Of a stretch of DNA of 36,342 bases, positions 7,798 to 34,484 are shown piece after piece; the stretch's first letter is position 1; the number at the start of each line of letters is the position of its first letter. The stretch spans positions 1 through 36,342 of the forward strand of contig VCMS01000542.1 of NCBI GenBank assembly GCA_022539475.1. Reading direction: 5' to 3'. This stretch comes from Gracilaria domingensis (lineage: Eukaryota; Rhodophyta; Florideophyceae; Gracilariales; Gracilariaceae). The translations under genes were made by a program, and so were the position numbers. The notes under the pieces are model-generated. The model searched no databases. It was not told the DNA's origin and was given only the letters and a program-made list of their open reading frames with translations.

Positions 7798-7812
7798 TGG
7801 TCTCCCGACTTA
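7798..7812 (+). other. Candidate primer-binding site
   Basis: TGGTCTCCCGACTTA begins three bases after the LTR. TGG would pair with the CCA end of a tRNA whose 3' end reads CGGGAGACCA. The budding yeast tRNA-Tyr end looks similar, but the host tRNA is unknown and the assignment is tentative. Confidence 0.5.
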
Positions 7813-7958: not shown

Positions 7959-9968
7959 ATGTCGTCCCGTCGCAGGAGTGGCGCGCCACGTGCCGCTTCT
8001 GTGCCCGGTTCGTCCGGCTTGCCGGCAAGTTTGCCTCCGTTGCCGAAGGACGCACTGGAGGTCCCAGGCAATGGCGACCCGAAACCGGCTTCCCGGGGCC
8101 GCCGTTCTGATAACGGGACCCCACCCACTCGTGGGCCAACTGAAACCGCACCTGCGGCTGATGCCGCCGCAGCGGTTGACGTTATGTCGTCGCGGTCCGA
8201 CGAGTATACCCTCCGTGAATTAGAGGCTCAGGTTCGCATCCTGCAGAACTCCCAAGTGGGCCTCATCCGGGACATTACGAAACTCCGGCAACGGCTCGAT
8301 GAAGCCGGTGTCCGGGATGTTTCGAGCGACGTCCGTGTTTTACGGTCTGATGTCAACCAGATTATGGAACACCGACAGGTGTCGGCTGGTCTGCACGAGC
8401 AGGCTGCCGCACGCCTGGACCGCCTGGCTACCCGTCTGGAGACGGTCGAGCAAATCATCGTATCTGATGCTGTTGCGCCGGGAGCCCCGGTTTCTGAGGG
8501 TTCTCAGCACTCGCGCCGTTCCCGGGATCGTCCGGCAAAGAAGAAGGTCAAGGTTGAGTCTGACTCGTCTTCTTCATCCTCTTCTGATGAGGAGGGCCCC
8601 AAAAAGGGATCGTCTACCGACTCTTCGGACAGCGCGGAAGAGCGCTCTCGCTATCGTGCATCCCGTTCGCGGGCTACTGAAGCCACTTCTGGCGTTGCAC
8701 GAGGCCGTACGAAAGGACGGAGACACCTCGGATTGAAGGAGTTGAAGCCGACAAACTTACTGTATCGGAAGCTACTATCTTACCGATATTATCGGCTTGA
8801 TGACACGACGCCACAGAGGACCCCACGTGGGACTGGCAAAGTGCGAAATCATCTCCGACAAATGGAGCTCACGTTAAAGCCCCACAAGTTCTCTGGGGAA
8901 GATCCAATTCTTGTCTTGGATTTTCTTAGCCGCTTCGTAGCGGAAGCCGATGTACTTCGGATGAGTGAGGCACAGGCCTACATCGCGCTGCCGTACTTTT
9001 TGACGGGTGTAGCCGAAGATCAATTCAATTCGGTTCGTGGGTCGTCTCGCGCCTCCGAAGGAGGAGTTACGTGCTGGCCGCAAGCGGTACAATATCTCCT
9101 GCGCTCTTACGCGACAGGCAATGCGATACAAGGTGCCATACTCGCGCTACGAGACACGAAGCAAGGAGCCGAAGAGTCGGAAACCGTTTATTCGACCCGC
9201 CTCAATAAGGCTTTCCACAGATGTGGCAACGTGTTCTCCGCAGCCGAGCGGTGTACGATGTTTGTTGATGGACTGGACCGATCAATTCGGACGTTGGTAG
9301 CCCATTATCGGGAGAACAAACGCCGGATTACCTATCTGGAACTCGTTCAATTTGCCCAAGCGGAGGGAGATGCAGCTCGAGCACGCACTGGTATCAAGGC
9401 GCGCACGCGCCGACTCCTTCATGTAGAAGGCCGAGACTCCTCACTGCCTCACTCGCGAGGTTCTGTTCAAGGGGGTTATGATAACCTGCACCTGTTACAG
9501 GACGATGGTTCAATGCCGAGTTCGGAATTGCCGTCGACGACGGAGCAGTCTACAGTGGACGGAGACCCCGCTCTGTACGCCGGACGTCAAGTCCCGGCAT
9601 TGCCCGTGCCGCACTCTGGCGGATATCGAAGCCAACGCCCTGGATGGAGGGACCCGTATCCTCCTCGACAGGAGCGCCGGCCGCCCAACGCGGATCTTCT
9701 TCGTCACCTTATTTGTCATACCTGTTACAGGCCAGGGCACATCGCTCCGAATTGCTTAATGCCCATACGGGATATGGCGAAGATAGTGCCTCAGTATGAG
9801 TCGTTGACGCCCGCCGAGCGGGAACGTGTTCCCGACAAATCGTACCTTCGTGCGAAGGCGGAAACTCAGCCTGGAAACCAGGAAACGGTGCCATCGAATG
9901 GTGGAACTGTAGCCGCCCCTGCGGAATCGCAACCTCCGCAGATTGGCGGCGACGCTCAGAAAAACTGA
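7959..9968 (+). CDS. gag: Gag polyprotein
   Basis: 669 codons, ATG at 7959, TGA at 9966. It forms the virus-like particle and packages element RNA. The basic, Pro/Ala-rich N-terminus is followed by a predicted coiled coil (about residues 88-165), a Ser/Asp/Glu-rich acidic stretch (about 200-225, SDSSSSSSSDEEG), then the capsid-like domain (about 305-470, with FSGEDPILVLDFLSRF and a Ty3-type helical composition). A single CCHC zinc knuckle, CHTCYRPGHIAPNC, lies near residue 587 and should bind RNA. The ATG at 7959 is the first long-frame ATG after the leader. A shorter in-frame start cannot be excluded. The stop is placed within the likely frameshift site leading to pol. The CCHC spacing C-x2-C-x4-H-x4-C is canonical. 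Confidence 0.9.
   Translation: MSSRRRSGAPRAASVPGSSGLPASLPPLPKDALEVPGNGDPKPASRGRRSDNGTPPTRGPTETAPAADAAAAVDVMSSRSDEYTLRELEAQVRILQNSQVGLIRDITKLRQRLDEAGVRDVSSDVRVLRSDVNQIMEHRQVSAGLHEQAAARLDRLATRLETVEQIIVSDAVAPGAPVSEGSQHSRRSRDRPAKKKVKVESDSSSSSSSDEEGPKKGSSTDSSDSAEERSRYRASRSRATEATSGVARGRTKGRRHLGLKELKPTNLLYRKLLSYRYYRLDDTTPQRTPRGTGKVRNHLRQMELTLKPHKFSGEDPILVLDFLSRFVAEADVLRMSEAQAYIALPYFLTGVAEDQFNSVRGSSRASEGGVTCWPQAVQYLLRSYATGNAIQGAILALRDTKQGAEESETVYSTRLNKAFHRCGNVFSAAERCTMFVDGLDRSIRTLVAHYRENKRRITYLELVQFAQAEGDAARARTGIKARTRRLLHVEGRDSSLPHSRGSVQGGYDNLHLLQDDGSMPSSELPSTTEQSTVDGDPALYAGRQVPALPVPHSGGYRSQRPGWRDPYPPRQERRPPNADLLRHLICHTCYRPGHIAPNCLMPIRDMAKIVPQYESLTPAERERVPDKSYLRAKAETQPGNQETVPSNGGTVAAPAESQPPQIGGDAQKN
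9957..9968 (+). promoter_or_regulatory. Candidate -1 frameshift site at the gag end
   Basis: In gag frame the sequence reads CAG AAA AAC TGA. Pol lies in the -1 frame, which is open from 9800 onward. The A-site codon AAC preceded by AAA resembles the second half of the AAAAAAC slippery heptamer, although the first base is G. Element C ends gag with CAG AAA AAA TGA, so the A-run plus stop is conserved. Downstream, GCCTCC at 9977-9982 can pair with the GGAG..AGGC around 9989-9996 as a small stem. Confidence 0.5.
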
Positions 9969-12900
9969 GCAAGGGAGCCTCCAGCAATGGAGAGGCGCCC
10001 CCAGCGACGGGGTTTAGTGCGCCTGAGGCTGAGAAGCCTCGCTCCCCGGTCACAATCCTTTCGAGGAAACTGGCCACTACAGACGTGGACTCTGAGCACC
10101 TTGGTGTCTTGCGTCGCCCGTGGATACGGTCTAAGAACAGCCGGTTCCCGGATAGAGTCCTGGTCATGGCGAAACGTAACTACAAAGTTTACGCCGACCT
10201 GGGTGTTTCCGACCAGTACATGGTTCGGCAGTTGTCCGTGCTCGATACAGGAGCTGGGCCAAATTTCTTGGTTGAATCAATGATTCCGCCGCACTTGCGG
10301 TCTCGCGTTCGTGCGGCGCCGCAGATTGACATAGCGGATGCGAACAATCGGCCACTTTCGACTGTGGGAGTAATAGACCTGCTCGTCAGGCTTGGCCGCT
10401 ACGTGGCGAAGCTCGACTTCTTGGTTTGCAAGCAACTCGCTGCGCCGGTTATCCTCGGCTGCGACTTCTGTGACCGCTTCGTCGATGCAATTCGACCGCG
10501 GAAGCGAACCATCGAAATGGAAGATGGGACTACTGTACCGATCGTTCGGCGTCCCCTGCGCCGGGCTCTGAAGAAGCAAGTCCCTTTGCCTGCGGCACAG
10601 AAGCCTACAGCCGATGAACGGAAGTCTACAAAGCTCCGAGTAGCTCGACCCATTTCCATCCCGCCTGAATCACAGGTCTGGGTTACTGTGACCTCCCCAC
10701 AATGTGGCTTACAAACGGTACAACCGTTGCCTGCGTTACAGGAGAAGCATCAGCTTGCCCTCGCTAATGGGATTGTTTTCGTCGAACCCGAGAAGCCTTT
10801 TCAGGTGCTGGTTGCGAACTTCAGCCGTTTTTCTCAACGGTTGGTTAGGAGCCAAGTTATTGGTTCGTTGCTTCCGCACCCTGCGGCTATAGTGCCTACT
10901 CAGGTTTCTATTGCCGAGGTTCTCGGAATCCTCGAAGCTGAGGAGGGGGAAGCGGAACGGAACAATTCCGAAACGACTGGACCGAACAGTTCGTCGGAAG
11001 ATGCTACGCCGACTTCGTCGGATGCAAATAACCGCAGCCTGTCGAAGGAGGCAATGCCGACCTCGTCGGACAGTAATGATACGGACCTGAGTGCTGCTGA
11101 CACGAAGGATAAGGCAGTACAGGAACTGGAGTCTCTGGATCTTGAACATGTCCCAGAGACTCACCGCGATAAATTGCGGCACATGCTTGAGGAGTTCACG
11201 CCCATGTGGGATGGCACACTGGGTAAGATTGGTATTACCGAACATCGGATTGATTTGCTACCGAATACTCGGCCCATTTCACAGCACCCTTACAGGGCAG
11301 GACCGACAGCTCGGCAGGAGGAGAAAGCTCAAGTTGAGAAGATGCTCCGCGCTGGAGTTATCGAGCCGGCTCAGTCACCTTGGGCATCGCCGGTGGTGCT
11401 CGCGCCCAAAGCTGATGGGTCTTGGCGATTTTGCATCGATTACCGCAAGCTAAACGCGGCTACGGTCAAGGATGTGTATCCTATCCCACGAATGGATGAA
11501 TGCATCGATTCATTGGGCGACGCGAAAGTGTTCACAACCCTAGACGCGAATTGGGGCTATTGGCAAGTTCCCGTGAGGGCTGAGGATCGTGACAAGACAG
11601 CCTTCGTTTGTCATGAAGGATTGTACCGATTCAATCGGATGCCCTTTGGGTTAACGAACGCGCCAGCCACTTTTCAACGAGCTGTGGATATTTTGCTAGC
11701 CCGCTTTAAGTGGAAGACTTGCCTGGTATACCTGGATGACATCATTGTCTACTCCAGCAACCTGGATGAGCACTTGACCCACGTACGGGATGTGATGCGA
11801 GTCCTACGCGATGCAGGCATTACGCTCAAGCTCAAGAAGTGTGAGTTCTTTACCGAAACCGTCAGGTATCTCGGCCATGTTATCCGTCCGGGACGGCTTT
11901 CGATTGACGAAGTACGCGTGAAATCCCTCAAAGAGGCTAAGCATCCGAGGACGCAGACGGAACTCCGATCTTTTCTCGGCTTGTGCAATGTGTATCGCCG
12001 CTTCATTCCGAACTTTGCGGATATCGCTGCACCTCTGAACGAGCTTCTTCGCAAAGGCCAGCCAGTCGATCTGGAAGAATTCGACAACCGCAAGGTCGCG
12101 GCTTTCTCGTCGCTCGTGGACGCGGTGACATCGCCACCTGTTTTATCCCTGCCTAGGGCTGGTTTGCCATATGCAGTAGATACGGATGCGAGCGACTACC
12201 AAGTCGGCTGTGCCCTATTCCAGACCACCAATGATGGCGAGCGATTGCCAATTGGGTATTGGTCAAGGAGCCTCAACGTTCACGAGAGGAATTACTCGGT
12301 ATCCGAGAAGGAGTGCTTGGCAGTTGTCTGGGCGTTACAGACACTGCGGCCCTATCTTATGGGGACCCGCTTCATTGTCCATACCGATCATTCGGCATTA
12401 CGCTGGCTACTCTCTATAGCAGAGCCATCTGGCCGCTTGATGCGGTGGAGACTTCGCTTGTCGGAATTCGACTTCGAAATCCGTTACAAGAAAGGACTCC
12501 TGAACACTCAGGCTGATGCACTGTCCCGCTTGGAAACAGCGGCTGAAGCTGCGCCAGTCGATGATCTGGAGATACCGTGCTTCCTCGTGGAAGACGGCTC
12601 GAGCGATGCCGATGAAGAATCGGAAGGATGGGACATCTACGATGCTGTTTTAGCCGTGTCTGACACGAAACCCGAACCGGGCTCTTTCGTACCGATCAAG
12701 CCGGAGGAACTCATCCGGGAGCAGCACACCGACCGTTTTTGTACGGAGATTCGTAGTCGCCTAAACGGTGGAGCACAGTTGCCTTTCGTCGAGAACGACC
12801 AAGGATTTCTAATCCGAACCGTCGGAAACAGGCCACAGATTGTGGTTCCGCACTCACTTCAGTCACGAGTACTGCATTTGTCGCACTACGCGAAGTTGTC

Positions 12901-14164
12901 AGCCCACCCTGGTGGCAGGAAGTTGTACTACACCTTACGGAAGGACTTTTACTGGCCAGCAATGGCTTTCGACGCGTATGCCACTGTTCGTGGATGTTCT
13001 GACTGCGCGAAGAACCGCGTCAAACTGCGGAAGTACTCCAAGAAGTTGGTACTCTTCCCTGCCAGGGCTCCACTTGAATTCGTGGCAATTGACTTGCTCG
13101 GCGAGTTTATCCGCACTCGCCGGGGAAACCGGTTTCTACTTGTGATCACCGACCGTTTTTCTAAACTGGTACGGACTGTGCCTTTGACGAAGGTTACCGC
13201 CAGTGCGGTCGCCCAAGCTTTCGTTACACACTGGGTTTTTGTCTACGGACCGCCGATTGACCTGTTATCGGACAATGGACCGCAGTTTACGGCTAAGTTC
13301 TTTCAGGACGTTTGCCGCATCTTGCGGATCCAAAACTGGTTTACGACAACATACCACCCCCAGAGTAATGGGCAGGTTGAACGTTTTAACCGCACAATGC
13401 TCAATGCATTACGGACATTCGTTGCCGAACATCCGTCGGAGTGGGATCAATACACCGATGCGGTGACATATGCCTACAATACGCAGGTTCATCGCACTAC
13501 TCAGATCTCGCCGTTCGAGCTTGTGCTATCACGCGTTCCACCTTCGGTGGCTATCGAGCCACAGCCAACTTTGGATAAGTTCCCCTCGCCTCGTCTACAC
13601 AGGGACGCCTGGAAGGCCTGGCTTAAGAACATCATTCCTACAGTTAGGCAAAACATCGATAAGGCACAAGCCGCGTACAAGCGGAATTTCGACGCACGAA
13701 TGCGCAGGGATGCCCCTCAGATCAGGGAAGGTAACTACGCCTTCCTACGGAAGGAATACTATAACCCGGAAAAGGAGAAGAGGCATAAGCTCTCTCCTAT
13801 CGCGGACGGCCCCTACAGGGTTATTTCTATCACCGATACAACGGTTGTCCTCGATATTGAGGGTGAACACGAGCGTTTTTCGCGCGATCGCGTAACGCCT
13901 GCGCCACAGCCTGTTCGTCAGGAAAAGCAACCGGAAACGCCGGACAGCGCTACGCCTACTGTGGACCAAGCCGCGACAGCGGGAGAGCGCGCTTCGTTGT
14001 CAGTCCTGCCGCATCCTAGCCGCGGACTTGCTGATTTGCCGGCAAAGCCGGAAGCTAACCCGCCAGTCTCGAACGCCGCACATGTCCACACGCGGATACT
14101 GGCCCCTCAGGGGATACTCAACACCACCCCCGACGCTCCAACTGAGGAGGGGAGGAGGAGGTAA
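9962..14164 (+). CDS. pol: Pol polyprotein: protease, RT, RNase H, integrase
   Basis: The open frame is -1 to gag. I start it at 9962 because similarity to the pol of element C (SPVTILSR/ATTD segment) begins upstream of the first ATG at 10085. Counting from that ATG: aspartic protease LDTGAGPN at 53-60; variable Ser/Thr/Asp spacer about 280-350; reverse transcriptase about 390-640 with catalytic YLDDIIVYS at about 549; RNase H starting DTDASDYQVG at about 699; HHCC zinc region with CSDC at about 970; integrase DDE core with AIDLLGEF near 1001, SDNGPQF near 1062 and VERFNR near 1097; GPY/F segment KLSPIADGPYRVI near 1235. It copies element RNA into DNA and integrates it. It stops at TAA 14162-14164 after a Pro/Thr/Glu-rich tail. 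All catalytic residues are present and no frameshift is visible. Confidence 0.93.
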   Translation, partial: KLSKGASSNGEAPPATGFSAPEAEKPRSPVTILSRKLATTDVDSEHLGVLRRPWIRSKNSRFPDRVLVMAKRNYKVYADLGVSDQYMVRQLSVLDTGAGPNFLVESMIPPHLRSRVRAAPQIDIADANNRPLSTVGVIDLLVRLGRYVAKLDFLVCKQLAAPVILGCDFCDRFVDAIRPRKRTIEMEDGTTVPIVRRPLRRALKKQVPLPAAQKPTADERKSTKLRVARPISIPPESQVWVTVTSPQCGLQTVQPLPALQEKHQLALANGIVFVEPEKPFQVLVANFSRFSQRLVRSQVIGSLLPHPAAIVPTQVSIAEVLGILEAEEGEAERNNSETTGPNSSSEDATPTSSDANNRSLSKEAMPTSSDSNDTDLSAADTKDKAVQELESLDLEHVPETHRDKLRHMLEEFTPMWDGTLGKIGITEHRIDLLPNTRPISQHPYRAGPTARQEEKAQVEKMLRAGVIEPAQSPWASPVVLAPKADGSWRFCIDYRKLNAATVKDVYPIPRMDECIDSLGDAKVFTTLDANWGYWQVPVRAEDRDKTAFVCHEGLYRFNRMPFGLTNAPATFQRAVDILLARFKWKTCLVYLDDIIVYSSNLDEHLTHVRDVMRVLRDAGITLKLKKCEFFTETVRYLGHVIRPGRLSIDEVRVKSLKEAKHPRTQTELRSFLGLCNVYRRFIPNFADIAAPLNELLRKGQPVDLEEFDNRKVAAFSSLVDAVTSPPVLSLPRAGLPYAVDTDASDYQVGCALFQTTNDGERLPIGYWSRSLNVHERNYSVSEKECLAVVWALQTLRPYLMGTRFIVHTDHSALRWLLSIAEPSGRLMRWRLRLSEFDFEIRYKKGLLNTQADALSRLETAAEAAPVDDLEIPCFLVEDGSSDADEESEGWDIYDAVLAVSDTKPEPGSFVPIKPEELIREQHTDRFCTEIRSRLNGGAQLPFVENDQGFLIRTVGNRPQIVVPHSLQSRVLHLSHYAKLSAHPGGRKLYYTLRKDFYWPAMAFDAYATVRGCSDCAKNRVKLRKYSKKLVLFPARAPLEFVAIDLLGEFIRTRRGNRFLLVITDRFSKLVRTVPLTKVTASAVAQAFVTHWVFVYGPPIDLLSDNGPQFTAKFFQDVCRILRIQNWFTTTYHPQSNGQVERFNRTMLNALRTFVAEHPSEWDQYTDAVTYAYNTQVHRTTQISPFELVLSRVPPSVAIEPQPTLDKFPSPRLHRDAWKAWLKNIIPTVRQNIDKAQAAYKRNFDARMRRDAPQIREGNYAFLRKEYYNPEKEKRHKLSPIADGPYRVISITDTTVVLDIEGEHERFSRDRVTPAPQPVRQEKQPETPDSATPTVDQAATAGERASLSVLPHPSRGLADLPAKPEANPPVSNAAHVHTRILAPQGILNTTPDAPTEEGRRR
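10938..10952 (+). other. Internal polypurine tract in the protease-RT spacer (A)
   Basis: CTGAGGAGGGGGAAG closely matches terminal tracts of this family (CTGAGGAGGGGGAGA in L). It encodes part of AEEGEA in the fast-evolving spacer. Element C has its own PPT spelling at the homologous codons (32428-32441). Confidence 0.55.
14142..14161 (+). other. Internal polypurine tract at the pol 3' end (A)
   Basis: CTGAGGAGGGGAGGAGGAGG encodes the last residues before the pol stop. It is homologous in position to 1688-1704 in L and 29296-29309 in C. Confidence 0.55.
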
Positions 14165-14729: not shown

Positions 14730-15486
14730 GTGGGCAGCAGCCCAACGCTGCACACGCGCGCACGCTGCGCAAGTGTCTGGCTTCGCCGGCGATCCGCCTC
14801 CAGTGGAGGGTGACAACACACGAGCCGGGCACGTGCCCGCTGTAAGGATTGCGGCCGCCGGAAACGGAAATTCCGAATTTGAATCGGCAACGCACAGCCG
14901 TGCAACGGCGCAGGCCCCACCGCCAGCAATGCTTGGCAAGGCGTCGCCTCGGCACGTGCCACGGCACCACTCGCTGGCACACCGCATTGCGGACCGTTCA
15001 CCCTCACTTCGGGAGATCTTGCCGGAACGCCGGAAGCTCGCTATTCGAGAACACCGAAGCTCGGTAACAGCCCGACAATACGGGAAGGAAAGCCAGAACT
15101 CTGGAAGCCGGAATGACATGGAAACACCATGGTCAAAATGGCTCTCGCCTGGCGTACAGGGTGTCTTGCCGTCAGGACGGAAGCCGAAAGTAACCAATGA
15201 AGCCCACGACGGGAGAAGTAACAACGACACCTCGAGAGAGGATACATCGACAAAGCCGCATCTTGCGCGGAAGGTCCTCGATGAGGAGTATGTCATTGAC
15301 CGTCTGATAAGTCACGGCTACGCCCCTGACGGGGAACTACTGTATCGAGTCCGTTGGTACGGCTACGCCTCTTCAGAGGATACGCACGAGCCCATTGAGC
15401 ACTTGCCTCGCTCGAAGGTCTTGCAGTACCACCGTCGCACACGGACACCGATACCGGCTACGCTGGACAAGGCCCAAGTGGGTTGA
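14518..15486 (+). CDS. Linker second part and chromodomain (A)
   Basis: A 322-codon open frame ending TGA at 15484-15486. The first ~75 residues overlap the previous linker frame and are probably not used. From about 14730 the protein matches the B linker (HVPRHHSLAHRIADRSP, LPERRKLAIREHRS). The last ~75 residues form a chromodomain, with EYVIDRLISHGYAPDGELLY, RVRWYGY and EPIEHLPRSK, ending KAQVG as in B, L and C. The aromatic residues Tyr, Trp and Tyr expected of a methyl-lysine pocket are present at EYV and WYGY. The start shown is simply the first ATG of the frame. The domain is more likely the C-terminus of the integrase polyprotein. Confidence 0.7.
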   Translation: MRKVHARRSRSPAAAAHSRQKKPEDRKRSLSRKTVLLRQTRFREILLKHRVMKPLKTRRQPPQSRPTCHSRWAAAQRCTRAHAAQVSGFAGDPPPVEGDNTRAGHVPAVRIAAAGNGNSEFESATHSRATAQAPPPAMLGKASPRHVPRHHSLAHRIADRSPSLREILPERRKLAIREHRSSVTARQYGKESQNSGSRNDMETPWSKWLSPGVQGVLPSGRKPKVTNEAHDGRSNNDTSREDTSTKPHLARKVLDEEYVIDRLISHGYAPDGELLYRVRWYGYASSEDTHEPIEHLPRSKVLQYHRRTRTPIPATLDKAQVG

Positions 15487-15949: not shown

Positions 15950-16650
15950 CTATTCGCGGACTACCGTCAGCCCGTAGGGGATCGCGAGCCGGGAATTACG
16001 CGCCGGACGGCCCAGCACCTGGGGTGCCCCCACTACCGGAGCCCCGGAGAAGCGCTGTGCCGCTATTGCCTGCAACTCCGACTCGTCGGTCACCGTATCG
16101 GGAACGGCCACTCCCACGCCTCGAAGAAAGTCGCGAATGACCGGCCGCTCGCGGAGTGAGAGAAGAACTGCCGCCCACGGCGGATGCACATCCTGAGCCC
16201 ACGGGCCGGTCGGAGCGGGAGCCGCTACAGCGGGCGGGTCAACGATCACGACTTCGTCGTCATCTCCCGTAGCGTCGGCTCCGAGGCAACCCCCACTGGG
16301 CTCCCCTCATCCATGGGACTTCTCCCTCTGCAGGGTCATCACCGTCATCGTCGACGTATACGAACCCACGCGGGTGCCCTTCCGGGATATATCGCTCCTC
16401 TCGGCGGCGAACCAGCCGCCTCAGCGGGACCAATTACCTCCCAAATCCATGGGTCAAAGTATACGAAGTCGCCGGCGTTGACTTCCGTCCGGGTCGAGAA
16501 CGGTCGACTGCCGACGGACCCCGTCGAAACCATGACTAGCATTGCACCTCATTCCAGTCAATCTGTGTCAATTACGTCCACCAACGCGGTGGCTTCGCGC
16601 GCATTGCGGACCGAGCCGAGCACTTCCCCGGAGAGATCCAACCGCTCGGA
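15950..16650 (-). pseudogene. Antisense accessory gene, C-terminal part, cut by the gap (A)
   Basis: Read on the minus strand this is about 97% identical in DNA to the same part of the B gene (18228-18900). The C-terminal open frame 16249-15950 carries the conserved ending with VIRDFLRGVGVAVPDT. A second piece (16542-16345) has VNAGDFVYFDPW. Small indels, mostly in C or G runs, break the frame. They may be sequence errors close to the contig end. The N-terminal two thirds lie in or beyond the N gap. Confidence 0.65.
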
Positions 16651-16724
16651 NNNNNNNNNNNNNNNNNNNNNNNNNNNNNNNNNNNNNNNNNNNNNNNNNN
16701 NNNNNNNNNNNNNNNNNNNNNNNN
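16651..16724. other. Assembly gap (74 N)
   Basis: The left side ends inside the antisense gene. The right side restarts about 2.3 kb further upstream in the element map, in the linker. The gap therefore joins two overlapping pieces of similar copies and its size is not meaningful. Confidence 0.95.
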
Positions 16725-16725
16725 C

Positions 16726-17766
16726 AGTTTCGCGAGGCCTTCTGAGAAAGACGCCACCTCGGTGACGATTGCAGCCGGAAGACCGGAAGAGAAGGACGCG
16801 CCGTTACCACGGAAGGCTGAGGTGGAAGGCACCACTATGGTGAATCGCAAAGCCGGAAGTCCGGAGAAAGAAGAGTTAGTTCGAAAAAACCGTGCTGTTA
16901 CGGCAGACCCGACTTCGGGAGATTTTGGTGCAGCACCGAGTGCCAAAGCCGTCAAAAAGACGGAACCAACCACCAGTGTGGCGAACAGTCAAGCCACAGC
17001 AAGTGGGCAGCACTCAAGCACTGACGACGCGTGCACGTCGCGCCAAGTGTCGAGCTCCGTGGGAGATCCGCCTCCAACCGAGGATTACAGTGCGCAAGCC
17101 GGGCACGTGCCAGCCACAGACCTGGCGCCGCCTAAAAACGGTTCAAAAAATTCCGAATTTGAATCGGCTCTTGACAGCCATGCAAAGGCGCAGGTGTCGC
17201 AAACCGCAGCGCGCGGCGAACCGCCGCCACGGCACGTGCCAGAACACCACTCGCTGGCTCACCGCTCTGCGGACCGTTCACCGTCGCAACGGGAGATTGT
17301 GCCGGAACGCCGGAAGCTCGCTATTCGAGAAGACCGAAGCACGGTCACAGCCCAGCAGCATGGGGAGAAGAACCAGGAATCTGGAAGCATGGTGGTCAGG
17401 AAAGTACCATGGTCACGGAGACCAACGCCTGGCGTACAGGATGTACTGCCGTCAGGACGGAAGCCGATCACGAACGACGATGCCCACGACGGGAGAAGCG
17501 ACGACTACGCCTCGAAAGAGGATTCTTCAAGCAAGCCGCATACAGAGCGGAGTGTTCTCGATGAGGAATATGTCATTGACCGTCTGGTAAGTCACGGCTA
17601 CGCCCCTGACGGGGAACTACTGTATCGAGTCCGTTGGTACGGCTACGCCTCCTCAGAGGATACGCACGAGCCCATTGAGCACTTGCCTCGCTCGAAGGTC
17701 TTGCAGTACCACCGTCGCACACGGACACCGATACCGGCTACGCTGGACAAGGCCCAAGTGGGTTGA
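16726..17766 (+). CDS. Linker and chromodomain, intact open frame (B)
   Basis: One uninterrupted frame of 346 codons from the gap edge to TGA at 17764-17766. The linker (about 270 residues) is hydrophilic, rich in Ser, Glu, Lys, Pro and Arg, with no predicted fold. The chromodomain follows (YVIDRLVSHGYAPDGELLY, RVRWYGY, EPIEHLPRSK). Because the frame is open through the whole linker, the linker is most likely translated in a working element as a tail of pol, joining integrase to the chromodomain. The gene's 5' end is lost in the gap. Such a long linker is unusual: chromodomains normally follow the integrase core closely. Confidence 0.75.
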   Translation, partial: SFARPSEKDATSVTIAAGRPEEKDAPLPRKAEVEGTTMVNRKAGSPEKEELVRKNRAVTADPTSGDFGAAPSAKAVKKTEPTTSVANSQATASGQHSSTDDACTSRQVSSSVGDPPPTEDYSAQAGHVPATDLAPPKNGSKNSEFESALDSHAKAQVSQTAARGEPPPRHVPEHHSLAHRSADRSPSQREIVPERRKLAIREDRSTVTAQQHGEKNQESGSMVVRKVPWSRRPTPGVQDVLPSGRKPITNDDAHDGRSDDYASKEDSSSKPHTERSVLDEEYVIDRLVSHGYAPDGELLYRVRWYGYASSEDTHEPIEHLPRSKVLQYHRRTRTPIPATLDKAQVG

Positions 17767-18185
17767 CCACCCACGTTCCTATTGAGCGCAGCCGTCTCGG
17801 ACGGAATATGCCGCCTCATGCGGACAGTATTGCATTACGCAAGAATATGCCGCGTCAAGCGGGTGCAACTAAGTTAACTTGAGATCACTCAGCCGCCTCA
17901 GGCGGACCAGGCCGCTCTAAGCGGACAGCTTTTTGCTGAACAAACATGCCGCGAAATGCGGAAGCCACTTACAGTGGAGAGAAGATAAAGAAGAAAGAAG
18001 CCTAAGAAGAAGGAGAAGAAGCCAGGACACTGGAAGGAAGACTAAGAAGTTTTATCGCTACAGCCGCTTGTGCGGAAAAGTTACCCCTCTCTTGTGGGCC
18101 ATTCGCAACAGCCTCAAACGAGGTATTGCCCACTGAGAAGGGGAGAGCAAGACGAAGAGTTTGAGCCAAGCCAGCACGGCTGGAG
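17759..18185 (+). repeat. Array of miniature hairpins after the chromodomain (B)
   Basis: CCGTCTCGGACGG, CCGCCTCATGCGG, TTGCATTACGCAA, CCGCGTCAAGCGG, CCGCCTCAGGCGG, CCGCTCTAAGCGG, CAGCTTTTTGCTG, CCGCGAAATGCGG, CCACTTACAGTGG, CCGCTTGTGCGG, CCTCAAACGAGG and AGCCAGCACGGCT in succession. It fills the interval between the convergent chromodomain and antisense genes. Confidence 0.75.
18133..18146 (+). other. Internal polypurine tract before the accessory gene (B)
   Basis: CTGAGAAGGGGAGA, an exact copy of this element's terminal tract at 20106-20119. Confidence 0.6.
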
Positions 18186-18227: not shown

Positions 18228-20067
18228 CTATCGCGGACTACCGTAGCCGTCGGGGATCGCGAGCCGGGAATTACGCGCCGGACGGTCCAGCACCTGGGGT
18301 GCCCCACTACCGGGAGCCCCGGAGAAGCGCTGTGCCGCTATTGCTTGCAACTCCGACTCGTCGGTCACCGTATCGGGAACGGCCACTCCCACGCCTCGAA
18401 GGAAGTCGCGAATGACCGCCGCTCGCGGAGTGAGAGAAGAACTGCCGCCCACGGCGGATGCTACATCCTGAGCCCACGGGCCGGTCGGAGCGGGAGCCGC
18501 TACAGCGGGTGGGTCAACGATCACGACTTCGTCGTCATCTCCCGTAGCGTCGGGCTCCGAGGCAACCCCACTGGGCTCCCCTCATCCATGGGACTTCCTC
18601 CCTCTGCAGGGTCATCACCGTCATCGTCGACGTATACGAACCCACGCGGGTGCCCTTCCGGGATATATCGCTCCTCTCGGCGGCGACCAGCCGCCTCAGC
18701 GGGGCCAATTACCTCCCAAATCCATGGGTCAAAGTATACGAAGTCGCCGGCGTTGACGTTCCGTCCGGGAGAACGGTCCGACTGCCGACGGACTCCGTCG
18801 GAAACCTGACTAGCAGGCACCTCATTCCAGTCAATCTGGTCAATGACGTCCACCAACGCGGTGGCTTCGCGCGCATTGCGGACCGAGCCGAGCACTTCGG
18901 AGAGATCCAACGCTCGGATCGCTTGCCGGATGAGTTCCGGATGAACCAAACTCGGTACGAATCATATGCCTCGATGAGGAGGAAAGCCGCAACGCGGACG
19001 GTCCATTCTGTTGCCAGGATGCTCCACAGGCCGCGAGGCGGATCGTTCATGAAGTACGAGCCTATGTAAGTTAGGCAGGGCGGTAGCTCTACGTGACACC
19101 CTCGTGGGACTTCGACCGCAGGCCAGAATGACGGCAGCGGCAGGTATCGCCCAGTATGGGAGTGACGCGCAATGCGTTCCACCTCCGTGCACTGGTACGG
19201 CACCAGTACCCCGAAGCGGGAACGCCATTTCCTCTCGAATCGGAGGCCTTCATGAAATTGAGACCGTCCAGGACGGCGAAGGAACCGGAACTCGGCGCGA
19301 AGGATCGGCCGCGCCCACAGGATCAACTCCTGCTGCGGCTGAACGGTATCCGAATATCGGTCAATTTCGTCCAACGCGTTGGCTAGGTGGTCGCCGTAGC
19401 CGACCTCGCCGAAAGTTCGGTAACGTGCCACATCGTACTGGTACTGTGCCGGCACCGGATGTTCGTTCGGAGCTCGGAAGTGTCGCGCGTACCCAATGCG
19501 GGCCATCTCATTGCGAGCGAATTGTCTCGTCTCGTTTCGACCTACAAACAGGCAGCTCGGTATAACCGCAACGCGGGCGATCCAGTCCCATGAACGGGTA
19601 ACGTCAGCAGGAAGCCCACCAGGGAGTTGACCGTCGACAGCGTACGAGTCGACGAGCTCTGTATCCCGAACGGCTTCGGCGTCAAACCAGGGAGCCTGGG
19701 CAAAAAGGAAACTGTGCCGGTGCGGATCCCGGATGCGTAAGGCGCCTGCGGTAGGCCATCCACCCAGCGTAGCTGGCATCTCGGCGTTGAACCAATCCCA
19801 CACGGGCGCGGGACCAGCCTGAGCTGGAGCGTGATCTTGTCCGGAAGAACCCGGCTGGGAGGCAGCCGCCGACTGCGGGAGAGGTACAGACCGGAACGGC
19901 GGGTTCGACACTTGCATGCGTGCCGTCGAGGACGGAGGGCCGTTCGGTGCGTTGGACATCGCGGAAGGGCTCGAGATGACGAGGTTCGCTACTGACACCG
20001 GAGGTGTTGGTGGCTCCGAACAGTTCTCGGCAGACCCGTCTTGGGAGACTTCCTTATATCCCTCCAT
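18228..20067 (-). pseudogene. Antisense accessory gene of the A/B family (two frameshifts)
   Basis: Begins at ATG 20067, 52 bp from the 3' LTR, and runs toward pol to a stop at 18228-18230, about 610 codons. The frame 20067-18709 carries most of it; a one-base loss near 18945 moves it to the frame 18949-18521, and another near 18570 (C run, one C fewer than in A) to 18524-18228. A Ser/Pro/Ala-rich N-terminus (about 100 residues) precedes a conserved core with QAPWFDAEAV, GQLPGGLP, RYRTFGEVGYGDHLA, RPILRAEFRFLRRP, RFERKWRSRFG, VEVPRGC, ELPPCLTYIGS and RVAAFLLIEAYDSYRVW, then SDRSPGR, DFVYFDPW and a C-terminal helix. No signal peptide, transmembrane segment or known catalytic motif is evident. 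The protein is homologous to the antisense gene of elements C and D. Function unknown. Confidence 0.82.
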
Positions 20068-20105: not shown

Positions 20106-20119
20106 CTGAGAAGGGGAGA
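20106..20119 (+). other. Terminal polypurine tract (B)
   Basis: CTGAGAAGGGGAGA directly before the LTR start TGTAGAGC. Confidence 0.85.
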
Positions 20120-20973
20120 TGTAGAGCAAAACGCCCTTTGTGGGGATGCACCGAGGTGCTTTTCATAGTTTGTTGATCCGTTACCGGCTCGACACCTCAG
20201 GTTATGAGAGGCTACTGGGGTAGTGCCCCTATTTTGGGGTATGCCTAGGAAGGGTAGTATTTCTGCACACGTGTGCCAAGTTGGCCCGATCGCGCGGGCC
20301 CGTGGCAAGCATGCCACGGGGGCACACCTGTAGTGTATTGGCCGGCAGCGCCGGATAGTTAGATATTTTAATTGATATTTTCAAGTGCCGTATATAAGTG
20401 GCGGCACTTGCCGCCACTGTACGGGAAGTAAACCTCAACGAGGCCTTTGGCTCTGATCTTCTTGCCGCTTGCGCACGGTCACCAGCCCCATCCTGGGGAA
20501 TACCGCCGCAATTCCGGGCTGATCAACCAACCTCCGTCCCTGAGGAGTACTAATCCGTCGTCACGGCACTTTTCTTATCTATTTTATTGTTTTCATTTCC
20601 GTCTTACGGCTTTCGCTACTCTGCCCTACATTGTAGGTTTGTTTATTTGTCTCGGGAGTTTTCCCGCTTATCGCGAGTCAGTGCTCCGCAGTGCGGCTCG
20701 TTTGTTGATCTTTTGTCGTCCCATACCGTTGGGCTGGATACCCCCACTCGCTGTGGCTCGCCGGAACCATCCGGATACCTACGCCGATTCTACCCCTTCT
20801 ACCTCCGACTGCACGCCCAGATCGGGGCCACCCGGATTTACACCCGGCTCGTGTTGGCCCTATCGGAGGGTTCTGCCGCTCGACTGCCCTTCACAGGGAG
20901 CAGGGCCTGAACACCCTGAGGTGCTCGTCCGCGACGCGGTTTGTTGTTTTCCCGTCGAGGGTTTTGCACCACA
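20120..20973 (+). repeat. 3' LTR of element B
   Basis: 854 bp, TGTAGAGC to CACCACA, near-identical to 6937-7794. TATATAAG at 20391-20398 with the 9-bp palindrome follows the same pattern. Flanking DNA starts at 20974. Confidence 0.92.
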
Positions 20974-24751: not shown

Positions 24752-25725
24752 TGTGGGGCAAACTCGGAAGAGTGAAACCCACCAGACTGTCCGAAGGTCC
24801 GCTCTCGTGAGAGATGGCAGACCAGTGACAGAGCCCTCTGTACCACCGTAACTCGGTTGTAAGGCCGAAGTGGCAACTGGCTATACCTACAGAGGTGCTA
24901 GGCCACGTGGTGAGGAAACGATGAGAAACTCCAGAGATGGGGTGGTATCGGCAACGATGAAACACGACCAACGACAGGTGTAGTCCCGAGAGGGAAAGCA
25001 ACAGAAAACAACAACCAAACAACACCCACACGCGACGGGTAGGGCCTCCTCGGCACTGTGCCCGGAGCGGGGCGAGATCCTCCAACGGTAATGCACGGGT
25101 TTCCGTAAACACGGCAAAACTCTATACAGAGTCGGATCACTTCGTAATCTAGTCCTATACCTCCTCGGTACGACCCTCAGGTCCCGACATCAACGACAGA
25201 TGTTCCTCAAAGGTACCGAGAGGGTAGGACCACCGTAACCAGACGTGGCTATACTCGCGAGAGTGATAACCCACGTAGGCGGTTGGCGCCAGAGCCTCAC
25301 TCGTGTAGAGTCCACTCAGGAGAGCGCTACTCGACAAAGAGTTCACTTAGAAGTGCTCGGGTTGACTTTACAAAGGTGCTCGCGACGACGAGGTCGAGCT
25401 CACCTAAGTAGGTCTAAACTAACTATGTACATGTGGTGCACACCCGCAGGGGTCCGTACACGTGGCTAGCCCAGTGTCAGGCACCTCAGGTGCACTACCT
25501 ATTGTCCCGTAATATGCACACACACGGTGGTGTAGTACACGCGTCCACCTAGCGGTATTGGCCAGCAATGGCAACCCTGATTACAGGTAACTGTGGGAAA
25601 GCCATTCCAAAAGTAACCGCCAAAATTGGGTCCAACTCATAACTCTTCGAGTGCATCCTCGTATCACTCCCCTGAGTATATGAGGCGCATCATCCTGATA
25701 ACCACGCAAAATGCGTTGCTCTACA
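24752..25725 (-). repeat. 3' LTR of element C
   Basis: 974 bp. On the minus strand it begins TGTAGAGCAACGC and ends GCCCCACA. It matches 33511-34484 with only a handful of substitutions. Its first 10 bases and last 5 resemble those of the A/B LTRs; the rest is unrelated at DNA level. Confidence 0.92.
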
Positions 25726-25804: not shown

Positions 25805-27654
25805 ATGAGCGGTACCAACTCCTCGGTTTCTATACCTCGCAAGCGCGATACACACTCAAGCGAACAGAGTATTCAAGTATCCGAACTCGATCACAGTACA
25901 TCATCTGTCATTCCGATGAACCCGAATCAGTTTCCTCATCACCCGACGGGTCAGGCGAGCGCGTCGAACTACCCTCAGCCGCTGCGACGGCTCCACTGCC
26001 TCAGTCTCAACCGATGGTCCCGGTGAACGTTCCGTTATGGAATTCAGCGCAAGCGATGCCGCTGATGGCGAACCAAGCTGGTTGGATATCGAAGGAATCT
26101 CTCGCAGTACGCGATCCACTCCGTGATGGGTTTGCGTTCAGCCGTGCACCGTGGTTTCATCCGGTAGCTGTTAACGATGACACTCTCCTGGAGTCGTATG
26201 CCGAAAACGGCTTCCTACCGGGCGGTCTGCCGTTAGCGGTAGTGCAATCCCCAGAATGGAAAGTTCGTATAGCGATCGACCCGATGCTCCTCCGGTACGA
26301 TACCCGCGAGGGTGAGAACCTGAACACCGCGCGCGCGGAACACGCGAAGTTGGCGTACAAGAGACTCAGTCGAGTGCACCTCGAGCACCTGGTTCCACCG
26401 TCATATGGGTTCGATACTCCGTTCTACCGTACTTTCGGTGAAGTCCGATATGGAGACAACTTGGCGACGTTCGACCATGCGCGGTACGCTGGCGATGGCC
26501 CGACCACATCGAGGTTGATGTTGTGCTGGAATCGGCCCATACTCCGAGCGGAGTTCCGTTATCTTCGCAAGAACGCTTCCCAGGGTGGGTTCGTCAACCG
26601 CATTCGGTTTGAGCGGAAAGCTCGTTCCCGTCATGGGTATCTGATTCCGTACCCGAATATCGAGACCGAGAGGTACAGACCGCAGGCCTTTGTTGGACGG
26701 TTCCCTCCTCTACCAGATTGGTGGCGTGATGTGGAGGTACCCAAAGGGTGTTTTGCAGAACTGCCTCCGTGCTTGAGTTACATCGGCTCCCGATTGATCA
26801 ACGATCCGCGTTCAGGATGGTGGGGTCTCGTAGCCGGCGAGTGGGCGGCACGCGTAGCAGCGTTTCTTCTCTGGGAGGCTTACGACAACTACCGTGTTTG
26901 GTATATTCCGCCGATGCTTCGCAGCATTATCCGCTCGCTGGATTTGCACACTCCCTTGGGGTCCGAAGAGAACGTGGATGAGATCCATTACATCTTGGAT
27001 GTTATCGATGGAGTCGATTGGGAAACGGTGCCCCGTTCGCAACGCGGGAAAGGTCCTCGTCGTCACTACGACCGCTCACCCGGTAGGAGACATCCCACAG
27101 CAGAAGATTTCGTGTATTACGACCCATGGGAGGGTACGATGACGACTAGCGCATATGCCGAGTGGGCAGCGAACCAGCCACGGTCGATTCCAGACAGTCA
27201 CCCCGTTGGGTTCATGTTCAGTGACAACTGGGTCGCCCCAGTAGATCTGGATGATCCGAACATGGATACTGGTGGAGAGGCAGCTGGAGCACTCGTCGAG
27301 ATGGACCAGAAGTTGGTGAACGACCTACCGGCGGCGAATCAGGTGTTGCACGCCAGCGGCGGGGTACCCCAGGCTCCTGTGGGTTGGAATGTTCCGACTC
27401 AAGCGAGTGTTCCGGTGGTGGGTCCGGTCCCTGTAGCGGCTACCGTTCCTTCGGTCCTTCCGGCCCCGACAGCTCCGGTCGCTCCGGGAGATTCTCCGGC
27501 GAACATCGCGATGTTGCGCGCCACTCTCCAGAACGCTGGAATTATCGTGCCCGATCATCTCACCACTATGGCAGGGATACTGGCTTACGCCGTTCCGCAC
27601 CCTTCGCAGGGTCCCTCCGGTAGCGGCGGTGCCGGTCCCTCATCGGGGGTGTAA
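25805..27654 (+). CDS. Antisense accessory gene of element C (4-bp deletion near the start)
   Basis: Oriented opposite to gag-pol, starting 80 bp from the 3' LTR. The main open frame is 26014-27654 (546 codons). Compared with copy D, a 4-bp deletion near 25987 disconnects the first ~60 codons that begin at ATG 25805, so only the internal ATG at 26014 remains in frame. The conserved core has RAPWFHPVAV, GFLPGGLP, FYRTFGEVRYGDNLA, RPILRAEFRYLR, RFERKARSRHGYLIPY, VEVPKGC, ELPPCLSYIGS and RVAAFLLWEAYDNYRVWYI, then DRSPGRR, DFVYYDPW, a Pro/Val-rich spacer and a C-terminal helix (about residues 495-530). It is homologous to the A/B antisense gene at clearly diverged DNA level. No known domain, signal peptide or catalytic signature. 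It converges with the chromodomain gene. Confidence 0.85.
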
Positions 27655-28959: not shown

Positions 28960-31900
28960 TTAACACCGGTCGGTAACATTGAGCTGATCTACCGCTTGCG
29001 GTTCTGCGTTCCCCGGAAAGCCCGGGTCTACAGATACTGTCTTCTCCGCTCTGCGGGTGGTGACCTCACTCAGTTGTGGTGTTCCCGACGGGGTTACGTT
29101 ATCCACAGCGGTGTGTACCCCCTGGGTGGGTCGTGTCGTTTCCAGCGCATTGCTCAACGAACTCGACGAAGTATCACCACGAGGTACAGCGCCTCGGCGC
29201 ACCACAACGCTATCGGTAGAGACCGCGAGATTGGTTGCGGTACCTTGCGACAGAGTGTGACCGTGCGACGCCGGTGTAACGGGTTCCGTACTTTCCTCCC
29301 CCTCCTTAGGCGGTGGCACGGGAGCCACGACGTCCGGTGGGGGGTCAACTGTAGTTGAGTTTTCCTCTTCGTCTCCCGCAACGGGTTGTGCTACCCGCGT
29401 GGGTGATTCTGACTTCGGTAGATCCGATAACCCGCGATCAGGGCGGAGAGTCGCAGGGCGCGAAGATACGACCTGTTCGTCCCCTGTAGCTTTACCCAGT
29501 TGGGTGTTAACGTGAACGTACGGTGGTGGGGCCAGCGCGACACGGTCTAACGATATCCGTTCGTGGAGATTATTGATATCCAATACTACTGTATCGTGCG
29601 TGACGGAAATAACCTTGTAGGGTCCTTCCGCGATAGGCGAGAGCTTGTGGCGGCGTTCCTTCTCCGGATTATAGTATTCTTTGCGGAGAAATACCATATC
29701 GTCTGGTTTGACCTTTGGTAATGGGGTCTTAACCTTCGCATCGAAGTTGCGCTTATAAGCGGCCTGCGCCTTATTCATCGCTGTGCGAGCGACCGGTACC
29801 ATTTTGGTTAACCAATCCTTCCAAGCGTTCCTGTATAACCCAACAGACGGGTACGTAGAAAGCGTTTCTTGAGCCTCGATTGCAACCGGTGGCGGTACTC
29901 TTGACAATACCAACTCAAAAGGTGCTAGCTTCGTTACCCGGTGGACTTGGGTGTTGTACGCATACGTAATAGCGTCCGTATACAAATCCCAATCCTTAGG
30001 ATGATCTGCCACATAAGATCTTAATGCATTCAGCATGGTACGGTTAAATCGTTCTACCTGACCATTTGTTTGGGGGTGGTAGGTGGTCGTAAATAGATTC
30101 TTGACACTCAAGATCCGACAGACGTCCTGGAAAAACTTCGACGTGAACTGTGAACCGTTATCTGATAATAGATGAACCGGTGGACCGTACACAAAGACCC
30201 AGTGGGTGACAAAAGCTTGTGCAACCACGGTGGCCGTAATCCGTTTCAGCGGGACTGTCCGTACCAACTTAGAGAACCGATCGGTGATAACCAGAAGGTA
30301 TCGATTACCTCTTGCGGTTCTGATCAATTCACCTAAGATATCGATAGCGATAAACTCCAAAGGAGACCGTGCTGGGAACAGCGTTAACTTCTTCGAGTAC
30401 TTACGAAGTTTCACGTTATTCTTAGCGCACTCGGTGCAAGAGCGTCGTACTGCGTAGCAGTCCAATGCCATTGACGGCCAGTAAAAATCCCTACGCAGGG
30501 TCAAGTATAGTTTTCGACCTCCTGGGTGGGCTCCTACCTTCACATAGTGTGTCATGACCAACACACGGTTTTGCAGCGAGTATGGGACCACAATTTGGGT
30601 ATACGCTTCGACCAACCTAACCAGGTACCCCTGATCGTTAACCTGAAAAGGTAAACGATCTCCTCCATTGAGACGAGCGCGAATTCGCGTACAAAACTCA
30701 TCCGGTTGCTGTTCTCGGATCATCTCCTCGGGAGTGATGGGTACAAAAGATCCAGTCAAGGGATCCAACTTCTCAGAAGTGAGCAGGATGTCGTCACAGA
30801 TGTCATCCGACAAGGATTCGACCCAACCTGCTTGTTCTTCCACCATAAAGCATGGTATGTCCAGATCGTCAACTGGTGCCGCTTCTGCATCTGTCCCCAA
30901 GCGGGAGAGTGCATCTGCCTGCAGATTCAACGTTCCTTTTTTGTACGTAACTGTGAAATCGAACTCCGATAACCTCAAGCGCCAACGCATCAAGCGTCCT
31001 GATGGTTCCGAGATTTCCATGAGCCATCGGAGAGATGAGTGGTCCGTATGTACCGTAAAATGGTTGCCCATAAGATATGGCCTCAGTGTAGTTAGAGCCC
31101 ATACAACGGCTAAGCACTCTTTCTCCGAAACTGAGTAGTTACGTTCGTGTACGTTCAAGGATCGCGACCAGTATCCAATTGGATGTCTCACGCCGTCTTC
31201 CGTGACCTGAAACAGGGCGCAACCAACCTGGTGTGCATTGGCGTCAGTGTCTACTTCGAATGGAAGTCCTAGCTTAGGCAAAGCCAAGATTGGCGGTGAC
31301 GTTACTGCGTCAATTAATGCCGAAAAGGCAGACGCTTCCGCGTCGCCTAGGGGTTCCAGTTGAACTGGTTGACCTTTTCTCAAAAGGTGGTTAAGGGGGG
31401 TCGCAATATCTGCGAAGTTCGGGACAAAACGCCGATATACATTACAAAGACCCAGAAAACTGCGGAGTTCCGTTTGTGTCGTAGGGTGTTTCGCTTCCTT
31501 CAGCGACTTCACGCGAACTGCGTCAACTGAGAGCTGTCCAGGTCGAATGATATGCCCTAGGTATTTGACAGAATCTGTGAAGAACTCGCACTTCTTGAGT
31601 TTCAGCGTAATGCCCGCGTCCCTGAGGACTCTCATGACGTCCCGGACGTGTGTTAAGTGGTCATCAAGGTTATCGGAGAACACGATGATATCGTCAAGAT
31701 ACACCAAGCAGGTCTTCCACTTGAATCGAGCCAAGAGGATATCGATAGCACGTTGAAACGTAGCCGGTGCGTTGGTTAATCCGAACGGCATTCGCTTAAA
31801 CCGGTACAAACCTTGGTGGCACACAAAAGCAGTTTTGTCCTTATCCTTTTCACGGATCGGAACTTGCCAGTATCCCCAATTGGCATCCAAGGCGGTGAAC

Positions 31901-33510: not shown

Positions 33511-34484
33511 TGTGGGGCAAACTCGGAAGAGTGAAACCCACCAGACTGTCCGAAGGTCCGCTCTCGTGAAAGATGGCAGACCAGTGACAGAGCCCTCTGT
33601 ACCACCGTAACTCGGTTGTAAGGCCGAAGTGGCAACTGGCTATACCTACAGAGGTGCTAGGCCACGTGGTGAGGAAACGATGAGAAACTCCAGAGATGGG
33701 GTGGTATCGGCAACGATGAAACACGACCAACGACAGGTGTAGTTCCGAGAGGGAAAGCAACAGAAAACAACAACCAAACAACACCCACACGCGACGGGTA
33801 GGGCCTCCTCGGCACTGTGCCCGGAGCGGGGCGAGATCCTCCAACGGTAATGCACGGGTTTCCGTAAACACGGCAAAACTCTATACAGAGTCGGATCACT
33901 TCGTAATCTAGTCCTATACCTCCTCGGTACGACCCTCAGGTCCCGACATCAACGACAGATGTTCCTCAAAGGTACCGAGAGGGTAGGACCACCGTAACCA
34001 GACGTGGCTATACTCGCGAGAGTGATAACCCACGTAGGCGGTTGGCGCCAGAGCCTCACTCGTGTAGAGTCCACTCAAGAGAGCGCTACTCGACAAAGAG
34101 TTCACTTAGAAGTGCTCGGGTTGACTTTACAAAGGTGCTCGCGACGATGAGGTCGAGCTCACCTAAGTAGGTCTAAACTAACTATGTACACGTGGTGCAC
34201 ACCCGCAGGGGTCCGTACACGTGGCTAGCCCAGTGTCAGGCACCTCAGGTGCACTACCTATTGTCCCGTAATATGCACACACACGGTGGTGTAGTACACG
34301 CGTCCACCTAGCGGTATTGGCCAGCAATGGCAACCCTGATTACAGGTAACTGTGGGAAAGCCATTCCAAAAGTAACCGCCAAAATTGGGTCCAACTCATA
34401 ACTCTTCGAGTGCATCCTCGTATCACTCCCCTGAGTATATGAGGCGCATCATCCTGATAACCACGCAAAATGCGTTGCTCTACA
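33511..34484 (-). repeat. 3' LTR of element D
   Basis: 974 bp, the same length as 24752-25725, with very few differences, so C and D are recent relatives. It is preceded on the minus strand by a PPT and the accessory gene, so it is a 3' LTR and not the 5' LTR of C. Confidence 0.9.

What the first reader, a model, noticed from the sequence alone, without database searches (positions are those of the whole stretch)
18228..20067. A conserved unknown gene on the antisense strand of two divergent Ty3/gypsy families
Seen: between chromodomain and 3' LTR, a gene of about 600 codons opposite to gag-pol occurs in A, B, C and D. The A/B and C/D proteins share long motifs in the same order (YRTFGEV-YGD-LA, RPILRAEFR-LR, RFERK-RSR-G, VEVP-GC--ELPPCL-YIGS, RVAAFLL-EAYD-YRVW, SDRSPGR/YDRSPGR, DFVY-DPW), although the DNA is well diverged. 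Known: antisense or additional ORFs occur in some plant LTR elements, and antisense genes in some retroviruses. I recognise none of those proteins here. Inference: it has been kept by protein-level selection, and might be a regulator, a silencing suppressor or a particle component made from an antisense transcript.
Basis: partly seen in the sequence, partly recalled or inferred. Interest (0 to 1): 0.92.

Follow-up and report, generated by a model that had tools for sequence, protein, structure and literature searches.

The report
Antisense accessory gene in red-algal retrotransposons
Jumping genes in a red alga carry, on the strand opposite to their other genes, an extra gene for an unknown protein that natural selection has preserved and whose job still has to be found.

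Summary
In a red-algal genome, chromodomain Ty3/gypsy elements carry a gene of 599-681 codons between chromodomain and 3' LTR, on the antisense strand. At least three families (B, C/D, E) have it, with proteins 41-48% identical. Of 66 fetched loci, 57 (50 distinct places) show a chromodomain, always facing the other way. The gene is under protein-level selection: third codon positions vary like flanking non-coding DNA, first and second positions 2-4 times less. No sense frame explains this.

The window's own copies are imperfect: B and C are frame-broken, D runs off the end, A is a fragment. Intact copies exist elsewhere in the genome.

The protein matches no Pfam family. AlphaFold gives a confident, mostly helical core without a significant match in PDB or among viral models. 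Sixteen homologues were found, two in Gracilariopsis chorda. The start codon lies 52-79 nt from the 3' LTR, so the mRNA should start in or beside U3.

Antisense genes at this position are known in plant Retand/Grande elements and fungal Boty. This is a different protein in a new host lineage: a new variant of a known kind. A regulatory role is my best guess, not shown.

The parts
18270..20067 (-). antisense gene (aORF) of element B; frame broken in this copy, 599-codon copies elsewhere in the genome
15999..16641 (-). aORF fragment 'A', a divergent relative of B, truncated at an assembly gap
   Evidence: 60-76% identity to B in two frames
25805..27654 (+). aORF of element C, antisense to the minus-strand pol; frame broken near 25,981 in this copy
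34564..36342 (+). aORF of element D, open from ATG to the end of the window
20120..20973 (+). 3' LTR of B; its U3 edge lies 52 nt from the aORF start codon
6937..7794 (+). 5' LTR of B, 99.1% identical to the 3' LTR
20107..20119 (+). 3' polypurine tract of B
18134..18146 (+). second exact copy of the polypurine tract, between pol and the aORF 3' end (B family)
7959..9968 (+). gag ORF of B
   Evidence: zinc-knuckle match weak, E 0.3
10085..14164 (+). pol ORF of B (RT, RNase H, integrase)
17569..17715 (+). chromodomain next to aORF B
   Evidence: PF00385, E 1.4e-7
15289..15435 (+). chromodomain next to fragment A
   Evidence: PF00385, E 1e-7
28960..33417 (-). pol ORF of element C (RT, RNase H, integrase)
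24752..25725 (-). 3' LTR of element C; edge lies 79 nt from the aORF start codon
   Evidence: 79 nt measured in five other C copies
33511..34484 (-). LTR between C and D

Best explanation
A conserved accessory gene of a red-algal lineage of chromodomain Ty3/gypsy retrotransposons. SHOWN BY SEQUENCE: the gene lies convergent to gag-pol between the chromodomain and the 3' LTR, its ATG 52-79 nt from the LTR edge, and its protein is under purifying selection in two families, with relatives in a third family and in another red alga. INFERRED: it is read from a separate antisense mRNA that starts in or right beside U3 of the 3' LTR, so the LTR would act as a two-way promoter. The protein (mostly helical core of about 320-390 residues; variable, probably disordered N-terminal tail with a short PLPQS-like motif; low-confidence linker; small C-terminal helical segment) would then act in trans on the element's life cycle. 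The most likely level is regulation of the element's expression or silencing, or handling of its nucleic acid, as proposed for the plant Grande and Retand antisense genes and known for retroviral HBZ. My estimates: conserved antisense accessory gene 0.95; antisense LTR-proximal transcription 0.75; regulatory role 0.4.
For: Position and strand: of 66 aORF loci 57 show a chromodomain and all 57 have it on the opposite strand; 9 show none; 7 of the 57 repeat a place. Of 79 C-family aORF matches, 44 have a listed RT match within 8 kb, 44 of 44 opposite, 40 of them 2.7-2.95 kb apart; 35 have none listed. Selection. The C aORF is as free of stops as an equal-length RT/RNase H piece: 57 of 79 against 58 of 79 best-scoring matches. 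Homologues. ATG to LTR 52-53 nt in 27 B copies, 79 nt in 5 C copies and 1 E copy. Model. Plant and retroviral analogues.
Against: No RNA evidence of any kind was available. No fold or domain match suggests a biochemical activity. The core is not basic (pI 5.8 in B, 6.9 in C), so nucleic-acid binding is not indicated by charge. Copies were found and ranked by similarity to the aORF protein, which favours intact ones, and one search left out copies without an ORF above 450 codons.
Confidence: 0.5

Rival explanations
1. Structural or particle-associated protein: the aORF product is packaged in, or forms part of, the virus-like particle.
For: About 600-680 residues with a conserved folded core and a small C-terminal helical segment that could oligomerise (oligomerisation is a guess).
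Against: No profile similarity to the one Gag tried (hhalign probability 0.1%) and no significant Foldseek match in PDB or viral models. Expression from the antisense strand would uncouple its amount from Gag.
Confidence: 0.15
2. Suppressor of host silencing: the protein protects the element from RNAi or heterochromatin, needed because sense and antisense RNAs of the region are complementary over about 1.8-1.9 kb.
For: Geometry: the genomic RNA contains the complement of the aORF mRNA. Gene kept in high-copy families.
Against: No similarity to any Pfam family; not testable here.
Confidence: 0.2
3. Envelope-like or movement protein.
For: Lies between pol and 3' LTR, where env lies in retroviruses.
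Against: Antisense; the modelled core is a compact, mostly helical domain. No transmembrane predictor was run.
Confidence: 0.03
4. The ORF is a by-product of constraint on the sense strand or of composition, not a gene.
For: GC-rich DNA gives long chance ORFs; sense frame '-2' also shows fewer than expected changes (0.44 in B and 0.54 in C).
Against: That sense frame has 13 (B) and 26 (C) stops and its signal is expected as the shadow of shared third positions. The aORF frame alone is open, with ratios 0.35 and 0.51. Homologues keep the protein at 26-51% identity to C.
Confidence: 0.02
5. Host gene captured once and carried as a passenger.
For: Extra ORFs in some LTR elements are transduced host genes (PMC7264820, parts 1-2 of 3 read).
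Against: The listed matches fall in high-copy families, but the lists are capped and a few odd rows (such as C9:253483, with a stop) were not followed up. Selection and presence in three families argue against a passenger.
Confidence: 0.1

Closest known systems
Plant Retand lineage antisense ORFs (TRP28, PF04195), incl. maize Grande gene23 and rice RIRE2
   Same: Gene antisense to gag-pol between pol and 3' LTR, kept in most copies, function unknown; Grande gene23 protein is nuclear and transcribed from its own promoter (PMC11963269 abstract and passages; PMC7264820 parts 1-2 of 3).
   Different: Red-algal host; elements carry a chromodomain (Retand are described as non-chromovirus); no TRP28 or other Pfam match; ATG only 52-79 nt from the LTR.
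Boty of Botrytis cinerea (antisense ORF between pol and 3' LTR)
   Same: Non-plant element with an antisense 3' ORF (seen only as a mention in PMC7264820).
   Different: Fungal; its protein was not compared here.
HTLV-1 HBZ / HTLV-2 APH-2 antisense genes
   Same: Antisense genes of retroviruses with nuclear products; HTLV has an antisense promoter inside the 3' LTR (passages of PMC11963269; part 2 of PMC7264820).
   Different: HBZ overlaps other genes and is a bZIP protein (recalled); here the gene has its own interval and no Pfam match.
Oomycete Chronos elements (Ty3/gypsy with a captured chromodomain)
   Same: Chromodomain Ty3/gypsy outside plants, fungi and vertebrates (PMC5348765, passages seen).
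   Different: Chronos also carries an extra RNase H, which was not looked for here; the word 'antisense' does not occur in that paper's main text.

Membership tests
Antisense additional ORF at the 3' side (aORF-3R type) | ORF antisense to gag-pol, between pol and 3' LTR | tested here: met
Antisense additional ORF at the 3' side (aORF-3R type) | present in most copies of a family, conserved like other element proteins | tested here: inconclusive
   57 of 79 best-scoring C copies without stops against 58 of 79 for RT, and selection; but copies were found by the aORF itself, so the share of all copies that have it is not known, and pol is better conserved than the aORF
Antisense additional ORF at the 3' side (aORF-3R type) | antisense transcript | not testable with these tools
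   no RNA reads available
Plant Retand aORF | TRP28 domain PF04195 | tested here: not met
   Pfam scans at E <= 1 of 19 alignment members and of 4 proteins, two of them among the 19: no PF04195
Plant Retand aORF | non-chromovirus element | tested here: not met
   PF00385 chromodomain downstream of pol in B, A and C; no RT tree was built
Retroviral HBZ-type antisense gene | promoter inside 3' LTR | not testable with these tools
   only indirect: ATG 52-79 nt from LTR edge
env-like gene | sense orientation | tested here: not met
Gag duplicate | similarity to the element's Gag | tested here: not met
   hhalign probability 0.1%; one Gag sequence only

The most novel reading that the evidence does not exclude
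A protein family with a fold not seen before, spread through red-algal Ty3/gypsy elements and made from an antisense promoter at the LTR edge, is an essential trans-acting factor of these elements. Antisense genes in retroelements would then have arisen independently at least in flowering plants, fungi, retroviruses and red algae, pointing to a general advantage of placing a regulator on the antisense strand. In the B family, a second polypurine tract beside the gene may serve plus-strand priming or mark how the gene was acquired.
Probability: 0.35. Interest if true: 0.82.

Novelty: new variant of a known kind. Interest (0 to 1): 0.62.

Why it matters
In the two reviews seen here, antisense genes of LTR retrotransposons come from flowering plants and one fungus, with no function established. 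A further, apparently unrelated case in red algae, with clear selection, three families in one genome, a core with no structural match found and a start codon tight against the LTR, makes convergence testable. It also offers a compact, well-conserved protein for structural and localisation work. It warns that such genes can stand in databases as host 'hypothetical proteins', as two do for Gracilariopsis chorda (their place inside elements there was not checked).

Tried and rejected

Literature: ten searches of open PMC papers; their listings showed no report of an antisense gene in red-algal retrotransposons. Most listed papers were not opened; subscription papers and Repbase were not searchable.

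Full report
WHAT WAS CHECKED. The window is one whole contig (C542) of a 77.9-Mb eukaryotic genome held as 680 contigs. The host is most likely a red alga: 14 matches to the phycobilisome linker family, four on one contig that is probably the plastid genome, and one linker whose matches include the rod-core linker LRC2 of PDB entry 5y6p besides cyanobacterial linkers (that 5y6p comes from a red alga is recalled). The only named homologues of the gene are from Gracilariopsis chorda, a florideophyte. The species is not known to me.

ANATOMY. Element B runs from its 5' LTR at 6937-7794 through gag (7959-9968) and pol (10085-14164; RT, RNase H, integrase by Pfam) to a 3' LTR at 20120-20973; the two LTRs are 99.1% identical. 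Its 3' part is duplicated around an N gap at 16651-16724, giving two chromodomains (15289-15435 and 17569-17715, PF00385) and two antisense genes: fragment A (15999-16641) and gene B (20067 down to about 18270). On the other side, element C has pol on the minus strand (28960-33417), LTRs at 24752-25725 and 33511-34484, and aORF C at about 25805-27654 on the plus strand. A further aORF, D, runs from 34564 to the window end. The aORF start codon is 52 nt (2 copies) or 53 nt (25 copies) from the LTR edge in 27 B copies, and 79 nt in five C copies and one E copy, with the polypurine tract in between.

IS IT REAL? Yes. BLASTP of B against C: 48% over 294 residues, E 6e-84. The genome lists 79 C-type and 93 B-type matches; both lists are capped and may include redundant contigs. 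A third family, E, accounts for 20 further rows (same query range, 42% identity to the query P0003); two were fetched, one was read (681 codons), and its pol 3' part lies downstream on the opposite strand. Of 66 fetched aORF loci, 57 show a chromodomain and all 57 have it on the opposite strand. Nine show none: six were cut out too short, one is cut by a contig end, and two (L029, L030) lack it. Seven of the 57 repeat a place already counted, leaving 50 distinct places. Of 79 C aORF places, 44 have a listed RT match within 8 kb, 44 of 44 on the opposite strand, 40 at 2.7-2.95 kb; the other 35 had no listed RT nearby, which two capped lists can explain but was not checked.

SELECTION. Within family B (32 loci, 30 unique sequences, 241 variants) the ratio of nonsynonymous to synonymous changes, each against expectation from the same mutation spectrum, is 0.35; in C (32 loci, 7 of them repeats, 23 unique, 173 variants) 0.51. 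The other frames give 1.09-2.00, except one sense frame (0.44 and 0.54) that shares third positions with the aORF and holds 13 and 26 stops. Variant density by codon position is 0.025, 0.040, 0.099 in B (26 unique copies), against 0.124 in the flank towards pol and 0.093 in the LTR. In C (24 unique copies) it is 0.037, 0.037, 0.075 against 0.071 and 0.063 (copies without an ORF above 450 codons were left out). So third positions evolve like non-coding flank and the others two to four times more slowly. In the 53 nt beside the ATG, density is low in B (1 variant) and high in C (8 variants), which I do not explain. Between families, differences per codon position are 0.42/0.40/0.67 (B-C), 0.44/0.38/0.67 (B-E) and 0.48/0.42/0.65 (C-E); NG86 dN is 0.59-0.68 and dS 2.5-3.3, saturated. 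pol is better conserved between B and C (68.6% amino-acid identity; dN 0.23) than the aORF (43-48%). Fragment A against B gives dN/dS 0.55 and 0.64 in the two matching frames and 1.10 in a wrong frame; A is short, broken and from the C-terminal part. Caveat: all copies were found by similarity to the aORF protein, which favours intact ones; the codon-position comparison with LTR and flank depends less on this than the stop counts do.

THE PROTEIN. Sixteen homologues were found in a database of 5.8 billion proteins, of which each search scored about 8,000 candidates. Two are named, both hypothetical proteins of Gracilariopsis chorda (a third search added none). P0010 is 66% identical to B, closer than B is to C in the same genome, and P0012 is 43% identical to E. 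The families are therefore probably older than the split of these hosts, or the elements moved between them. Whether any of the sixteen lies in a retrotransposon was not seen: no context was available. Fourteen columns are invariant in the 19-row alignment, many of them Arg and Glu (R139, E143, R182, E200, R201, R204 and others of C). The model of C has a mostly confident core (residues 22-407, with a dip to 60-67 around 341-360), a low-confidence linker (408-490) and a short helical segment near the C terminus (495-526). Residues 22-340 alone reach pLDDT 91.7 and pTM 0.89. No Foldseek match is significant. By eye, six of the proteins (B, C, E, P0001, P0010, P0012) share a short motif like FRSVPLPQS in the N-terminal tail; its significance was not tested, and the tail was not modelled.

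HOW IT MAY WORK. Because the start codon is within 80 nt of the LTR, an mRNA for it must start in that short stretch or inside the LTR, unless it is spliced. I infer an antisense promoter in U3. The gene converges on pol, so its mRNA need not overlap gag-pol, but the genomic RNA carries its complement. A separate promoter would let the element make this protein independently of Gag-Pol. That suits a regulator or silencing counter-measure better than a particle subunit. This is inference; no activity was shown.

A SECOND POLYPURINE TRACT. In 25 of 27 B copies examined, an exact copy of the last 13 nt of the copy's own tract recurs downstream of the aORF stop (about 140 nt in copies with the full frame); the other two are L029 and L030. 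In L015 the shared word is 15 nt; a shared word of 14 or more nt had probability 0.00025 or less in Markov simulations. It was not found in C and E, so it is not part of the shared design. It may be a central primer site or a trace of how the segment was added.

KNOWN OR NEW. [quoted passage not shown] PMC11963269, abstract and passages read). Retand elements are called non-chromovirus and 97% of their clusters carry TRP28; neither applies here. I therefore file this as the same kind of arrangement, with a different protein and a new host lineage, not as a member of the Retand type.

WINDOW QUALITY. B and C in this contig differ from copies on contig C100 only by small indels (0 substitutions over 1794 and 1847 aligned bases), and the two genes lie about 6 kb apart on both contigs. 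C542 is thus probably a redundant or less accurate assembly of the same locus, and its broken frames may be assembly errors.

Noticed in passing
18134-18146 and 20107-20119: Exact second copy of the polypurine tract (15 nt shared in copy L015) between pol and the antisense gene; seen in B copies, not in C or E.
   Followed up: yes
window against contig C100 (about 402-417 kb): The right half of the window seems to be the same locus as C100, differing by indels only in the two genes compared: probably a redundant assembly contig.
   Followed up: partly
28960-34484: Element C has no room for gag: the pol ORF begins about 93 nt from the 5' LTR. It shares that LTR with element D in a tandem arrangement.
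   Followed up: no
16651-16724: Run of N inside element B, with the 3' part of the element duplicated on both sides (chromodomain and antisense gene twice).
   Followed up: partly
P0010 (Gracilariopsis chorda): The annotated protein lacks a stretch of about 30 residues that B has near the start of the core: perhaps a false intron in the gene model.
   Followed up: no
N-terminal tails of B, C, E, P0001, P0010, P0012: Short conserved motif like FRSVPLPQS in an otherwise variable tail; a possible binding motif.
   Followed up: no
7798-7809: Primer-binding-site-like TGGTCTCCCGAC three nt after the B 5' LTR; which tRNA it fits was not tested.
   Followed up: no
G000 C9:253483-254934: A lone, more distant aORF match with stops, not grouped with B, C or E.
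   Followed up: no
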